Positions 1-25,690 of a DNA stretch of 64,000 nt are shown in pieces. The position numbers and the translations under genes were made by a program. The notes under the pieces are model-generated. The model was not told the origin of the DNA, made no database searches, and saw nothing but the letters and a program-made list of their open reading frames with translations. Within the stretch, counting starts at the first letter, position 1. Each line of letters begins with the position of its first letter. This DNA is from Enterobacter huaxiensis (lineage in GTDB: Bacteria; Pseudomonadota; Gammaproteobacteria; Enterobacterales; Enterobacteriaceae), in assembly GCF_003594935.2 (NCBI RefSeq), contig NZ_CP043342.1, positions 1,674,001 through 1,738,000 on the forward strand, read 5' to 3'.

Positions 1-1284
1 TTTAACCGCGTGGCCGTTTGCGATGGTCGGCTGTATGAGATGAACGACGAGGATTATTTCGAAATTAACAGCGCCAGCGTTAAAAGCCTGAGCATCACGC
101 CGGCGCTGGATCTGAATCCGAAACTGAACGAATTCACCACGGGCTGGGTTGACGATATCTGGACGGCGTTTGGTGAAAAAGGGTATGTGGCGCTGGCGTT
201 CTGGCTGGGGTCGCTGTTCGCTGAGCAAATCCGTGAGCGTGACAAGTCTTTCCCGTTCCTTGAAATCGTGGGCGAACCCGGCACAGGTAAATCCACGCTG
301 ATTGAATTCCTGTGGAAACTTGCCGGCCGTGAAGAGTATGAAGGGTTTGACCCGTCCAAATCGACCGCTGCCGCGCGCGGCCGTAACTTCGCTCAGGTCG
401 GCAATTTGCCGGTCGTACTGATTGAGGGCGACCGCACCACAGATAACGCCAAACAACGCGCTTTTGACTGGGACGAGCTGAAATCACTGTACAACGGTCG
501 TGCTTCCCGCGCCGTGGGTATCAAATCGAACAATAACGAGACCTACGAGCCACCATTCAGAGGCAGCATAGTGATAGCGCAGAACGCCGACACAGACGGC
601 AGCAAGGCGTTCCTGGAGCGTATCATCCACATTTATACCGACAAGCGCGGCCAGTCCATTCAGACCCGCTATGCCGCCGAACGCCTCGAGCAAATACCTG
701 TTGGCCACGTATCTGGTTTTACGCTGCTGGCCACCATGCGCGAAAGAGAAATTATGAAAGTGTATGGCCAGGGCTACGAACGCGCCCGTAGTGAACTGGA
801 GTCCAACACCAATATTCGCCATATCCGTATTGCCAAGAACCACGCTCAGCTGGTCGGTTTGCTGGAGGCGCTGGCGCTGGTTGTGCCGGTACCGCTGGAA
901 CGCATTGAGAAGACACGCGAGGCCATCACGGCACTGGCCGTGGAACGCTGTCAGGCACTTAAAAAGGATCACCCTCTGGTACAGGGGTTCTGGGAGCTGT
1001 TTGATTACCTCGACGAGCTGGCACCGCACGGCATTAACCATTCATCAGATGAAGGGGAGATTGCCGTCAACTTCAACCATCTGGAAGAAGTCGCTGCCGC
1101 TCACCGTCAGCGCATTCCGTTCACGTTAACTGAGATCAAAAAGCTGCTTAAAAACGGCAATGAGCGCCGTTTTATCGACACCAAAACCACGCGTAGCGCG
1201 TTGAGTGAACGCCACAACCGTGGCAAAGGTGAAATGCAACGAATGCCGGAAACCTTCCGGTGCTGGATTTTTAAACGAAACTAA
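1..1284 (+). CDS. Phage replication helicase/primase, C-terminal part (cut by window edge)
   Basis: This is the C-terminal part of a phage replication protein. The frame is open to base 1, so the true start lies outside the window and the GTG at 10 is probably internal. The visible part has a Walker A motif GEPGTGKST at about residues 88-96 counted from that GTG, and a Walker B-like VVLIEGD about 40 residues later. This is the layout of the helicase half of P4-alpha-type or toprim primase-helicases. In this position in P2/HP1-like phages the gene unwinds and primes phage DNA. The stop is followed by a perfect palindrome (1316-1349) and the phage accessory gene. The ATPase fold is well supported; the presence of a primase domain upstream is inferred. 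Confidence 0.75.
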   Translation, partial: FNRVAVCDGRLYEMNDEDYFEINSASVKSLSITPALDLNPKLNEFTTGWVDDIWTAFGEKGYVALAFWLGSLFAEQIRERDKSFPFLEIVGEPGTGKSTLIEFLWKLAGREEYEGFDPSKSTAAARGRNFAQVGNLPVVLIEGDRTTDNAKQRAFDWDELKSLYNGRASRAVGIKSNNNETYEPPFRGSIVIAQNADTDGSKAFLERIIHIYTDKRGQSIQTRYAAERLEQIPVGHVSGFTLLATMREREIMKVYGQGYERARSELESNTNIRHIRIAKNHAQLVGLLEALALVVPVPLERIEKTREAITALAVERCQALKKDHPLVQGFWELFDYLDELAPHGINHSSDEGEIAVNFNHLEEVAAAHRQRIPFTLTEIKKLLKNGNERRFIDTKTTRSALSERHNRGKGEMQRMPETFRCWIFKRN

Positions 1285-1315: not shown

Positions 1316-1349
1316 CTGTGACATAATGATGGAAGATGTTATGTCACAG
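1316..1349. promoter_or_regulatory. Perfect 11-bp inverted repeat (operator-like or terminator-like)
   Basis: CTGTGACATAA (1316-1326) and its exact reverse complement (1339-1349) are separated by 12 bases. No T-run follows, so a protein-binding dyad upstream of the 1421 gene is more likely than an intrinsic terminator. The half-site TGTGAC also recurs in the repeat element at 23781-24073. The 12-base spacing resembles the dyad geometry of P2 Ogr sites, but the half-site differs from the P2 TGTTG. AT-rich DNA with TATGATATTAT-like sequence follows (about 1361-1372) and could be a -10 region. Confidence 0.5.
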
Positions 1350-1420: not shown

Positions 1421-2419
1421 ATGAGTGAAACCATAGATAAAGTTTTGGATGCGGCAAAAGCAGTTACAACAGAACCAGTAATGAAGGTTATAAATCAGAG
1501 GTTGTCAAATCCTTTTTTTCTGTGTTTTATATCATCCTGGATAATATGTAATTGGGATCGCGTACTACTACTCTGTTTCTCGTTTAGCTTGGGCATGGAA
1601 CAACGTATTGAGAAAGTAAAAGCATTGCCGTCAAATAGCGTTTTTTGGGGAGTTAGTCTTCCTCATGCTCATACGTTTTGGTATCCATTTATTATCACTG
1701 TTATATTTGTGGTTGGCACTCCGTTTCTTTCATATATTGTCGATATCATTCAAAATGAAGTGCTCACGAAAAAAAACACGAATGACAGTCAAAGAAAAAA
1801 GGACGTTCTGGATTTAAAGATAAATGAGATCAATAAAAATGTTGAGTATGAGTATGCTGACGCAAAAGCACGATTGAATGCTGAGAATGCGAATAAGACT
1901 ATTGAATATAGCACGACAGCTCTCGAGGAAAAATATAACGATATGAGTGTAAGGGTTAGGGATTTAAATATTTCCATAAAAGAAAAGGAACAACAAATTA
2001 AAGCTCAAAATGTTTCTTATACCCAGGCATCTGACTCTTTGTTAATGATAAGGGGAGAGCTGGACTTAAAAGGGAAGGAGTTGGTTGAACTAAATTCAAA
2101 AATTATCTCCAATCAAAAGAAACTTGATGGTATAAAAAACGAGATATCAAAGAACACTCTACCTTTTACAACTTTAGGTAATATCGCTAACTTAGTTGAT
2201 GGGAATGGTATAAGTAGTTTAAGTGGTTTAGGCTTAAGTGGTTTGGATTCTCTGAAGCTTAATAATGCAAATGGCCTAAGTAATGATGCTGTTAAACTTT
2301 CTTTAGCTGCTAAAGCTTTGAATGCCACAGATTTGAAACCAGCCCACACTAAAGCCGAGCCTAACAAACAAGCTAAATTAGCTGCTAAAAATCCCGGCAA
2401 GAATGACAAGAATAATTAA
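1421..2419 (+). CDS. Accessory membrane-anchored coiled-coil protein of unknown function
   Basis: I do not recognise a named family. The 332-residue product has an N-terminal block ending in NPFFLCFISSWIICNWD, a first hydrophobic segment, then a second strong transmembrane segment around WYPFIITVIFVVGTPFLSYIV. About 150 residues of heptad-like charged coiled coil follow, then a Gly/Ser/Leu-rich stretch and a Lys/Ala-rich tail. ATG 1421 is preferred because it gives a natural N-terminus (MSETIDK); ATG 1403 in frame is possible, and neither has a strong Shine-Dalgarno. The gene is markedly AT-rich compared with its phage neighbours. It sits between the replication gene and the ogr/portal block, which is the tin/old accessory hotspot of P2-like phages. 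A superinfection-exclusion or defence role is inferred from position only. Confidence 0.7.
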   Translation: MSETIDKVLDAAKAVTTEPVMKVINQRLSNPFFLCFISSWIICNWDRVLLLCFSFSLGMEQRIEKVKALPSNSVFWGVSLPHAHTFWYPFIITVIFVVGTPFLSYIVDIIQNEVLTKKNTNDSQRKKDVLDLKINEINKNVEYEYADAKARLNAENANKTIEYSTTALEEKYNDMSVRVRDLNISIKEKEQQIKAQNVSYTQASDSLLMIRGELDLKGKELVELNSKIISNQKKLDGIKNEISKNTLPFTTLGNIANLVDGNGISSLSGLGLSGLDSLKLNNANGLSNDAVKLSLAAKALNATDLKPAHTKAEPNKQAKLAAKNPGKNDKNN

Positions 2420-2431
2420 TTATTTATAGAG

Positions 2432-2455
2432 AAGGCACCAGGATGGTGCCTTTTT
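2432..2455 (+). terminator. Intrinsic terminator after the accessory gene
   Basis: The stem GGCACC (2434-2439) / GGTGCC (2445-2450) has a 5-base loop and is followed by TTTTT (2451-2455). It lies between the rightward accessory gene and the convergent leftward ogr-like gene, whose stop begins at 2456. It is strong for rightward transcription and weaker in the other direction. Confidence 0.8.
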
Positions 2456-2725
2456 CTATGCGGCCAGACCGGCCTTCAATAAATCCAGCGTCATTTGCTT
2501 CTGTTCTGGCGAGAAAGAATTAAGGATCGTCTGCACCATCAAGTCCCCGGTTTTGGCACTGGGGCTTAACGTGTGCGAGAACGTCAGGTTAAGCACGAAG
2601 GTATGGCCGCATTCCACATCTGAACACGCGCAGTAGATATCTGAGATATGGGGGTGCTTGGGATTCGTCTTTTTGATGATCGCCTTTGCCCCGCACTCCG
2701 GACATTTTACTTTTAGTACCCGCAT
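2456..2725 (-). CDS. ogr: Ogr/Delta-like zinc-finger late transcription activator
   Basis: This 89-residue protein has the P2 Ogr zinc-finger spacing. C8-x2-C11-x22-C34-x4-C39 matches the C-x2-C-x22-C-x4-C of Ogr/Delta; an extra Cys sits at 32. In P2-type phages this protein binds upstream of late promoters and contacts the alpha subunit of RNA polymerase to switch on head, tail and lysis genes. The start at 2725 is chosen because GGAG lies 8 bases upstream and the metal-binding domain follows at once. It is the last gene of a leftward operon behind portal and terminase. In P2 itself ogr sits near attP after gene D, so the location is different here. Confidence 0.85.
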   Translation of the reverse strand: MRVLKVKCPECGAKAIIKKTNPKHPHISDIYCACSDVECGHTFVLNLTFSHTLSPSAKTGDLMVQTILNSFSPEQKQMTLDLLKAGLAA

Positions 2726-2778
2726 ATTCTGCGCTCCATGACCCTGAAAACGCCTATATTTTAGCCTTTTTGGGCGCA

Positions 2779-3798
2779 TTAATCACCTTCCAGCTCGCTG
2801 TCCTTCAGGAAATTCAGGTACAAATGCTGTGGAATTTCTGGCTGATTAGCGACAGCCGCCGCAAACATGCGCTGAATGGGTAAAATTTCAGCCTTACGGT
2901 AGGTTTTAGCCGCTTTCTCAATATCTCCCATTACTGCACCGTTCGTCGGGATAATCCCCGCCAGCCCGGCCGGGAAGCGGTGCGCGGTGAGAACATCCTG
3001 GGCGCTGATGCTCTTGATATTCTGAAACTCATCTTTGGCACTGATATCGCCAATCGGGATAAATTTGATGCCATCCGGATCCCCTTTGGGGATATTCACG
3101 AACATGGTGCTGAAGTTCCCGATCCCCTTCGACTGTTCCAGCTTGCTGATAATTTCTTCTTCCACCTCGTCGGTCATGTTCGGGTCGTTACAATAAATCA
3201 TACCGCCCGTATGGCCACCGTTGTGGTAATAGCGGCGGCGGAAGATTGTTGCCTCACCGTTCAGCAGGGCGGAGTGAATCCCGCTGATGTAGTCCGGCAG
3301 GCCATAGATTGCCTGCTGCGGATCGTACTGTTTCAGGAAAATAATATCCTCCTCCGGGTAAATCATCGGTTCAGCCTGTTGCAGTACGACGAATTCGCCT
3401 GTTTTACGCTGGCGGGTATACAGCGCCGGCAGCGGATACAGCGCCACCACATCCCCCCATCCGTTACGCACTTTCAGAATAGCCACATCACCGAACGTGA
3501 GCCAGTCGAATACGGCAGCGCCGAGCTGCTCATGCGTCAGCCCGCCATTCTCATAGTTAGCCGTCACCATGTTACGGCGGGCATACAGTACACCGCCGTG
3601 CTGTGCATTCAGGTTAACCAGCTGCGCCAGCGCCAGCCGGTCAATCGGCAGCGTCCAGTGTTCTGCCTCGTTGTCGTACCAGACATCGGTATAGTTTGTG
3701 CCGGTGGTCAAAATGGGTTCTGGTTTACCCAGGCTGATAAGGCTCATATGACGAGGTTTTGGGGCGCTGCGGCGCTCCCGGAATTTGCGTTTCTTCAT
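2779..3798 (-). CDS. Q: Phage portal protein (P2 gpQ family)
   Basis: This 339-residue protein has the length and order expected of the P2 gpQ/PBSX-type portal (gpQ about 344 aa). It forms the dodecameric ring at the unique capsid vertex through which DNA is packaged and to which the tail joins. Recognisable stretches include a basic N-terminus (KKRKFRERR) and the motif RRRYYHNGGHTGGMIY in the middle. Its start overlaps the end of the terminase gene by 4 bases, indicating translational coupling, and the ogr-like gene follows downstream in the same leftward operon. Confidence 0.93.
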   Translation of the reverse strand: MKKRKFRERRSAPKPRHMSLISLGKPEPILTTGTNYTDVWYDNEAEHWTLPIDRLALAQLVNLNAQHGGVLYARRNMVTANYENGGLTHEQLGAAVFDWLTFGDVAILKVRNGWGDVVALYPLPALYTRQRKTGEFVVLQQAEPMIYPEEDIIFLKQYDPQQAIYGLPDYISGIHSALLNGEATIFRRRYYHNGGHTGGMIYCNDPNMTDEVEEEIISKLEQSKGIGNFSTMFVNIPKGDPDGIKFIPIGDISAKDEFQNIKSISAQDVLTAHRFPAGLAGIIPTNGAVMGDIEKAAKTYRKAEILPIQRMFAAAVANQPEIPQHLYLNFLKDSELEGD

Positions 3799-17348: not shown

Positions 17349-17353
17349 TTTTT

Positions 17354-24337: not shown

Positions 24338-25690
24338 ATGGAATTCAACGAATATCAAGCTGAAGTAATTAAAGATATAAAATCTTGTCTGGAAGGTCTT
24401 CAGGTTCAACCCATTTTATTTATGGGGGCAGGTATTTCTCAACGTTATATGAACTCTCCTTGTTGGGAGGAGTTACTAAAGTATCTGGCAGATTTATGCC
24501 CGCTGATAACACGCCCTTACGGATATTATAACCAGATGCATAATGGCAATAAGCCAATGATTGCTAGTGATTTCTCTGAATTATATGCTGAATGGGCATG
24601 GGATGCAGGAAAAGATAATTTCCCTGAAAAATATTTTACGGAAAATAATTCAAAAGATATCTATATCAAGCATGTGATATCAAACCACTTAAATTCTTTA
24701 TCGGCTGGGGTAGATTTTGACACCCATGAGCATAGAGAAGAAATACAAAAACTCATAAAGATACGACCGCATGCAGTCATAACAACAAATTATGATGATG
24801 TTCTGGAAAGGATTTTTGAAAACTATCAACCAATAGTTGGTCATGATGTAGTTACGGTTAATTATACTTCCTACGGCGAAATCATGAAAATACACGGGAG
24901 TAGTACGGAACCTGAGAGTTTGATAATAACGAATGATGACTACATCCATTTTTATAATAGACGGAAATATATTAGTGCGAAATTGTTAACTTATTTCGCT
25001 GAGCATCCACTGTTCTTCTTTGGGTATAGTGTAAATGACGAAAATATAAAATCTATACTATCTGATATAGATGAGATTATTTCCCCAAACAATGCTCTAA
25101 TACCTAATATTTACTTGGTATCCTTTGATAAGGATTGTGAAAAAACTGGTTCACATCAAAAAGAAATACTTATAGGTGTTGGGGAGAATAAATCAATAAG
25201 AATAAAAGTAATCTACGCTAATGATTTTAGTTGGGTATATGACGCACTTTCATCGAACTCTCCAGAGATTAGTGTTAACCCTAAACTAATCAGAGCTCTC
25301 TTAGCTAGGACATACACTTTTGCATCCCAATCATTAGTTAAACAAGAATTAGCGTATGATTTCGAAATGCTTAGACAAATTGCTGAAGAAGATAGTACTC
25401 TGCCTAAGCTGTATGGAATCGCTGAGCTTAATAATGGGCAGGCATTGAATGCAAACTACCCTTATACAATGTCTGAAGTAGCAAAACTATTAGGTCGGCA
25501 GTCATGGCATGCAGTGCAAAATATAATTGATAAAATTGAAGAAGAAAAACATTTTGATATAAAATCGAGTGATAATAATTACCACATAACAATAATGACA
25601 GGGAAAACAGGCTTTCATAAATATTCTCCATTGGCCCTTGAATTAATGAAAAAGGTCATAAACGGAGATGATTACGAACTGAATTTGTAA
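24338..25690 (+). CDS. SIR2-family protein, probable NAD+-degrading anti-phage effector
   Basis: This 450-residue protein has a SIR2-like NAD-binding domain. It contains GAGIS at residues 30-34, TTNYD at 149-153 (catalytic-type Asn151), KIHGS at 184-188 (His186) and FFGYSVNDENI at about 228-238. This is the pattern of bacterial SIR2 defence proteins, which deplete NAD+ on phage infection, not of classic zinc-containing CobB deacetylases. The C-terminal 130 residues are helical with a winged-helix-like stretch (YTMSEVAKLLGRQSWHAVQNII) and could be the sensor. The gene is strongly AT-rich, sits alone next to attR, and has AGAGG upstream of its start. A defence role is inferred from family and position; the trigger is unknown. 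Confidence 0.85.
   Translation: MEFNEYQAEVIKDIKSCLEGLQVQPILFMGAGISQRYMNSPCWEELLKYLADLCPLITRPYGYYNQMHNGNKPMIASDFSELYAEWAWDAGKDNFPEKYFTENNSKDIYIKHVISNHLNSLSAGVDFDTHEHREEIQKLIKIRPHAVITTNYDDVLERIFENYQPIVGHDVVTVNYTSYGEIMKIHGSSTEPESLIITNDDYIHFYNRRKYISAKLLTYFAEHPLFFFGYSVNDENIKSILSDIDEIISPNNALIPNIYLVSFDKDCEKTGSHQKEILIGVGENKSIRIKVIYANDFSWVYDALSSNSPEISVNPKLIRALLARTYTFASQSLVKQELAYDFEMLRQIAEEDSTLPKLYGIAELNNGQALNANYPYTMSEVAKLLGRQSWHAVQNIIDKIEEEKHFDIKSSDNNYHITIMTGKTGFHKYSPLALELMKKVINGDDYELNL

What the first reader, a model, noticed from the sequence alone, without database searches (positions are those of the whole stretch)
1421..2419. Unrecognised membrane coiled-coil gene in the P2-type accessory hotspot
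Seen: an AT-rich gene with two membrane segments and a long cytoplasmic-type coiled coil, isolated by a palindrome upstream and a terminator downstream, between replication and portal blocks. Known: the same slot in P2 carries tin/old and in P2-like relatives is a hotspot for anti-phage genes. Inference: it is a candidate new superinfection-exclusion or abortive-infection protein.
Basis: partly seen in the sequence, partly recalled or inferred. Interest (0 to 1): 0.66.

Follow-up and report, generated by a model that had tools for sequence, protein, structure and literature searches.

The report
Prophage membrane gene, probable phage exclusion
A virus lying dormant in an Enterobacter chromosome carries, in the spot where related viruses keep genes that fight rival viruses, an unstudied inner-membrane protein; relatives turn up in the accessory slots of unrelated viruses and beside bacterial anti-virus genes, so it is probably a defence protein, but nobody has tested it.

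Summary
Window 1421-2419 (+) is a real 332-residue gene, 35% GC against 54-55% around it, in a Peduoviridae prophage of Enterobacter. It has a membrane hairpin, a long helical rod and a disordered tail. The upstream palindrome is real. The downstream terminator is also real, but it belongs to the slot: it is present in sister phages whose slot is empty.

Protein, structure and defence libraries give no name; the best match is PHROG 4780, function unknown. The family is defined by the first ~110 residues (R27, P31, N44, W45, P89, P101); the rest is variable.

The slot is an accessory hotspot. Sister prophages hold nothing there, small genes, an unidentified gene, this family, or a P2 Old nuclease (PADLOC E 1e-215). 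Relatives occupy accessory slots of epsilon15-like and lambdoid phages, usually opposite to the neighbouring genes. Remote relatives lie beside AbiH plus Hachiman, type I restriction genes (three loci) and DUF4238.

A random-region control limits this last point: 3 of 10 relatives' regions against 1 of 10 random ones hold PADLOC defence genes.

Best reading: a prophage-borne membrane sensor-effector against rival phages. Abortive membrane damage seems likelier than an entry block. Neither was tested.

The parts
1421..2419 (+). Accessory gene of 332 aa: membrane hairpin, helical rod, disordered tail
1511..1579 (+). First membrane segment (residues 31-53), helix broken at invariant N44-W45
1667..1750 (+). 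Second membrane segment (about residues 83-110), with invariant P89 and P101
1757..2155 (+). Helical rod / coiled coil (residues 113-245), continuous with the second membrane helix
2156..2416 (+). Disordered tail (residues 246-332), dN close to dS between carriers
1316..1349 (.). Palindrome CTGTGACATAAT...ATTATGTCACAG, kept in carriers L030, L026 and L027 with paired substitutions in L026
1343..1371 (+). Promoter candidate: GTCACA, 17 nt, TG-A-TATTAT extended -10; -10 part conserved in four carriers (consensus scan alone is at chance level)
2432..2456 (.). Terminator hairpin AAGGCACC...GGTGCCTTTTT; belongs to the slot frame, present in the empty slot too
10..1284 (+). C-terminal half of the phage primase (PHROG 1139), left border of the slot
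2456..2779 (-). ogr/Delta zinc-finger late activator, right border of the slot
2779..3798 (-). Portal protein gene

Best explanation
The gene is an accessory (moron) gene of the prophage that protects the lysogen against other phages. Its product sits in the inner membrane by a conserved two-helix hairpin, with a long helical rod reaching into the cytoplasm and a variable end. Most likely it is a one-protein sensor-effector: the variable cytoplasmic rod and tail sense an infecting phage, and the conserved hairpin then acts on the membrane (leak or depolarisation), aborting the infection. Shown here: the predicted hairpin-rod-tail architecture, strong constraint on the hairpin and little on the tail, the accessory slot, and relatives beside defence genes. 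Inferred: expression in the lysogen, phage protection, sensing and membrane damage. My split: anti-phage function about 0.7; given that, abortive membrane action about 0.6 and entry block about 0.3.
For: Slot: empty, variably filled, or holding a P2 Old homologue in sister prophages; two papers show that the equivalent P2 slot is a defence hotspot (PMC9122126; PMC9519451). Family: same module in the terL-portal gap of epsilon15-like phages and the P-ninB or DnaB-ninB gap of lambdoid phages, on the strand opposite to the neighbouring genes, which implies its own promoter and expression apart from the lytic operons. Remote members directly beside AbiH and Hachiman (L143), type I RM (L144, L146, plasmid L039) and DUF4238 (L081). 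Constraint on residues 1-115 (dN/dS about 0.06) and a tail with dN near dS; invariant N44, W45, P89, P101; exchangeable C-terminal ends, a winged helix in L082.
Against: No assay. The random-region control is weak: 3 of 10 against 1 of 10 regions. PADLOC has no model for the family. The tail may simply be unconstrained rather than a sensor. Some members lie at chromosomal sites with no defence neighbour seen (L079, L082, L147). The sensor-effector step is inferred from modular design only; topology is assumed.
Confidence: 0.42

Rival explanations
1. Entry exclusion: the membrane hairpin binds or blocks the inner-membrane route by which rival phage DNA enters, and the rod contacts the incoming injection complex, in the manner of SieA, HK97 gp15 or SNIPE without the nuclease.
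For: Membrane anchor plus elongated cytoplasmic part, as in SNIPE (PMC13190303); single gene in a moron slot; conserved membrane residues could bind a host membrane partner; variable rod and tail could follow phage proteins.
Against: No sequence similarity to P22 SieA or SieB and no Pfam or PADLOC match. Chromosomal members beside restriction, AbiH and Hachiman genes and a winged-helix end in relatives point to a cytoplasmic trigger.
Confidence: 0.22
2. A lysogenic-conversion or host-directed membrane protein unrelated to phage defence (for example a cell-envelope, division or prophage-stability function).
For: The slot also holds genes that are not known defence genes (small ORFs, the unidentified 239-aa gene), and Rousset et al. 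report partition and toxin genes in the P2 slot (PMC9122126). The control for defence neighbourhood is weak.
Against: Relatives occur in several unrelated phages and beside several different defence systems, which a single phage- or host-specific function would not predict.
Confidence: 0.2
3. A phage structural, assembly or lysis protein (holin/spanin-like or tape-measure-like) carried out of place.
For: Two membrane helices plus coiled coil; BFVD matches at noise level include tape-measure proteins (E 2 and above).
Against: The close relative ESSI2_ev239 has holin, endolysin, Rz-like spanin and tape-measure genes annotated and nothing of this family in its slot; sister phages with an empty slot exist; the AT-rich gene lies outside the late operons; relatives occur on a plasmid and in defence loci.
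Confidence: 0.03

Closest known systems
PHROG 4780 / 13369 / 35327 / 8191 (phage protein families of unknown function)
   Same: Full-length family match, PHROG 4780 E 9e-43; all 20 aligned members match both 4780 and 13369
   Different: Nothing in membership; the PHROGs give no function, and here the family is extended to plasmid and chromosomal members in defence loci
P2 tin/old accessory slot (Rousset et al. 2022, PMC9122126)
   Same: Same place between the replication gene and the late-gene block; a sister prophage holds an Old homologue in exactly this slot
   Different: In this phage the replication gene is a primase rather than gpA and ogr lies between the slot and the portal; the protein has no similarity to Old
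SNIPE (PD-lambda-1; PMC13190303)
   Same: N-terminal membrane anchor followed by an elongated cytoplasmic region; single-gene system
   Different: No DUF4041 and no GIY-YIG nuclease found in the window protein; two membrane segments instead of one
P22 SieA and SieB (superinfection exclusion)
   Same: Small prophage-expressed membrane proteins from accessory genes with their own promoter
   Different: No detectable sequence similarity (hhalign probability 1.2 and 0.3); no long rod

Membership tests
PHROG 4780 family (two-helix membrane hairpin with R-x-x-N-P, N-W, P, P pattern) | Significant profile match over most of the protein | tested here: met
   E 9.1e-43, residues 9-319
PHROG 4780 family (two-helix membrane hairpin with R-x-x-N-P, N-W, P, P pattern) | Conserved N-terminal residues R27, P31, N44, W45, P89, P101 | tested here: met
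   N44, W45, P89, P101 in 24 of 24 members, R27 and P31 in 23 of 24
Prophage accessory (moron) gene in the P2-type slot | Gene absent or replaced in otherwise collinear sister prophages | tested here: met
   Empty 33-bp slot, small ORFs, Old, other gene, or this family
Prophage accessory (moron) gene in the P2-type slot | Own promoter and expression in the lysogen | tested here: inconclusive
   Extended -10 candidate conserved in four carriers, but the promoter scan is at chance level; no expression data
Anti-phage defence or superinfection-exclusion gene | Protects against phage infection | not testable with these tools
   Needs a plaque assay
Anti-phage defence or superinfection-exclusion gene | Family enriched beside known defence genes | tested here: inconclusive
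   3 of 10 against 1 of 10 random regions by PADLOC at E 1e-20; several members directly adjacent to defence genes
P22 SieB / SieA family | Sequence or profile similarity | tested here: not met
   hhalign probability 0.3 and 1.2
SNIPE | DUF4041 and GIY-YIG nuclease domain | tested here: not met
   No such match in Pfam
Phage structural or lysis protein | Homology to a structural or lysis family, or presence in all sister phages | tested here: not met
   absent from sister phages with an empty slot

The most novel reading that the evidence does not exclude
A large, so far unnamed family of single-gene membrane defence proteins: one conserved N-terminal membrane hairpin used as effector, joined to interchangeable cytoplasmic ends (disordered tail, winged helix, others) that set what is sensed. 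Temperate phages of at least three kinds carry it in their accessory slots, and bacteria carry it beside restriction, AbiH and Hachiman genes.
Probability: 0.45. Interest if true: 0.68.

Novelty: new member of a known kind. Interest (0 to 1): 0.5.

Why it matters
If it protects, a family now filed as 'unknown function' in several PHROGs becomes a defence family found in temperate phages of Enterobacter, Klebsiella and E. coli and in other gammaproteobacteria. The invariant hairpin residues give clean point mutants. The swap of cytoplasmic ends on a constant membrane module would make it a simple system for asking how a one-protein defence senses different phages.

Tried and rejected
Pfam, NCBIfam and PADLOC on the protein and on relatives gave only coiled-coil noise. 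PDB by profile: nothing. Foldseek of the window model against PDB and BFVD: no match at E 0.001. A phage-repressor operator reading of the palindrome: the paired 10-base arms do not recur upstream in the prophage or in the first 30 kb of the window; a single arm recurs once, near 17352. A gene-specific terminator: rejected, it is part of the slot frame. SieA/SieB homology: rejected within the limits of comparison with single sequences. A paper search for the PHROG name gave nothing.

Full report
WHAT IS THERE. The gene at 1421-2419 (+) is real and encodes 332 residues. The window lies in a 5.04-Mb genome of the genus Enterobacter: a same-genus genome with a 70% relative is on the contig of E. 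asburiae TN152. The prophage is related to Escherichia phage ESSI2_ev239 (Peduoviridae; 86% DNA identity over 90% of a 12-kb query). The gene is 35% GC in a 54-55% GC neighbourhood. It lies between a primase (10-1284, PHROG 1139) and, on the other strand, an ogr/Delta regulator (2456-2779) followed by the portal gene (2779-3798).

ARCHITECTURE. Hydropathy shows a weaker first and a stronger second membrane segment. AlphaFold gives an N-terminal helix (2-28), a first membrane helix broken at N44 (31-43 and 45-53), a short helix (59-68), then one unbroken helix from 83 to 245 that would pass through the membrane and run on as a rod; the tail 246-332 is disordered. Overall pTM is 0.29, so the relative placing of parts is not to be trusted. 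With the rod in the cytoplasm both ends would be cytoplasmic; charges of the loops are nearly neutral, so topology is an assumption.

FAMILY. The protein falls in PHROG 4780 (E 9e-43) and 13369 (3e-13), both of unknown function; all 20 aligned members match both. In 24 members N44, W45, P89 and P101 never change, and R27, P31 and I63 change once each. In 17 rows with more remote members P31, N44, P89 and P101 are still invariant. Constraint is concentrated at the N-terminus: against the E. asburiae homologue residues 1-115 give dN 0.054 and dS 0.85, residues 116-245 give 0.12 and 1.29, and the tail gives 1.05 and 1.41 with 19 of 82 aligned residues identical. The end of the protein is exchangeable: relative L082 has a predicted winged-helix domain there (Foldseek to MarR-type regulators, best E 6.5e-4), and the end of L145 gives mostly winged-helix regulators as weak PDB matches (E 0.3 and above). 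Pfam, NCBIfam, PADLOC and PDB give nothing but coiled-coil noise for the window protein.

THE SLOT. Forty-six loci with a related portal were fetched, and the stretch between primase and ogr was read where both flanks were found. It is about 33 bp long in L095-L098. It holds small ORFs in several, an unidentified 239-aa gene on the other strand in L090-L092 and in E. coli prophages, an Old nuclease in L102 (PADLOC Old, E 1.4e-215), and this family in L026, L027, L028, L029, L030 and the window. L028 belongs to a more distant phage (primase 61% identical) with the family in the same slot. The terminator hairpin (GGCACC...GGTGCC) recurs in most slots with other contents and in the empty slot, so it belongs to the phage frame. 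The upstream hairpin belongs to the gene cassette: it is kept in L030, L026 and L027, with paired substitutions in L026. Next to it GTATGnTATTAT, an extended -10 candidate, is kept in all four; the promoter scan alone is at chance level.

OTHER HOSTS OF THE FAMILY. In epsilon15-like phages a member sits in the terL-portal gap, opposite to its neighbours (EC.W1-9, BUCT711, L059-L067, L071). In lambdoid phages it sits opposite to its neighbours in the P-ninB gap (ST11-VIM1phi8.2, KO-TP1) or the DnaB-ninB gap (L068). In another P2-like prophage (L074, phage type read by eye) it again lies between the replication side and the portal. In L078 it lies beside a repressor-like gene (read by eye) while a TIR protein (PADLOC ThsB, E 2e-32) lies elsewhere in the element. 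Remote members, found with the N-terminal profile, stand next to defence genes: AbiH (Pfam E 2e-55) and Hachiman HamB in L143, hsdM-hsdS in L144, hsdR-hsdS in L146, a TIR/SEFIR gene two genes away in L148/L149, DUF4238 in L081; the Vibrio plasmid member L039, found by tblastn, stands behind type I RM and DUF262 genes. A DUF4238 protein from the P2 hotspot is a tested defence gene (PMC9122126).

CONTROL. I compared regions of about 11-12 kb around ten members outside recognised prophage slots with ten arbitrary 12-kb regions from the same genomes by PADLOC at E 1e-20. Three against one contained clear defence genes (the control one is L155, a type I RM locus). That difference is not significant. 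Direct adjacency within about 30 bp (AbiH, hsdS) is more telling, but I did not count it in a control of its own. The strongest evidence therefore remains the repeated use of phage accessory slots together with the Old replacement in the same slot.

HOW IT PROBABLY WORKS. A membrane hairpin kept nearly fixed and a cytoplasmic part free to change or be exchanged suggest a constant effector or anchor and a variable sensor. I favour an abortive membrane effect over an entry block. Pairing with restriction, AbiH and Hachiman genes and the winged-helix ends of relatives fit a cytoplasmic trigger; known entry-exclusion proteins mostly lack a long cytoplasmic rod (own knowledge). This step is inference. 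SNIPE (PMC13190303) shows that a membrane-anchored protein can also act at the injection site, so entry exclusion stays open.

VERDICT. Observation confirmed; hotspot inference supported; defence likely but untested; mechanism open. It is a new member of a known kind (prophage-borne membrane exclusion genes) from a family without a known function.

Noticed in passing
window 24338-25687 (+): AT-rich (34% GC) 450-aa gene at the other end of the same prophage with a SIR2 domain: PDB matches to DSR2 (E 1.8e-9) and Thoeris ThsA (E 1e-4). A second defence-type accessory gene in this prophage.
   Followed up: partly
L102:7619-9376: A P2 Old homologue (PADLOC E 1.4e-215) fills the same primase-ogr slot in a sister prophage.
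   Followed up: yes
L129:6043-6762 (also L090-L092, L131): An unidentified 239-aa gene on the opposite strand fills the same slot in E. coli and viral-contig relatives; no Pfam or PADLOC match.
   Followed up: partly
L143:3654-9518: Compact cluster AbiH, member of this family, a further gene (HamA position), Hachiman HamB helicase.
   Followed up: partly
L078:17618-19000: A TIR protein next to a short unnamed gene behind the replication gene of a P2-like prophage that also carries a member of this family beside its repressor; it recalls the AC1 TIR system of Rousset et al..
   Followed up: no
L144:7213-8493 and L143:7251-8558: These two defence-linked members share an extra C-terminal domain (around 'GxMAExxxxxDE') that the window protein lacks.
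   Followed up: no
window 1316-1349: The hairpin overlaps the candidate -35 of the gene's promoter and varies by paired changes between carriers; it has no T-run and looks more like a regulatory site or insulator than a terminator.
   Followed up: partly
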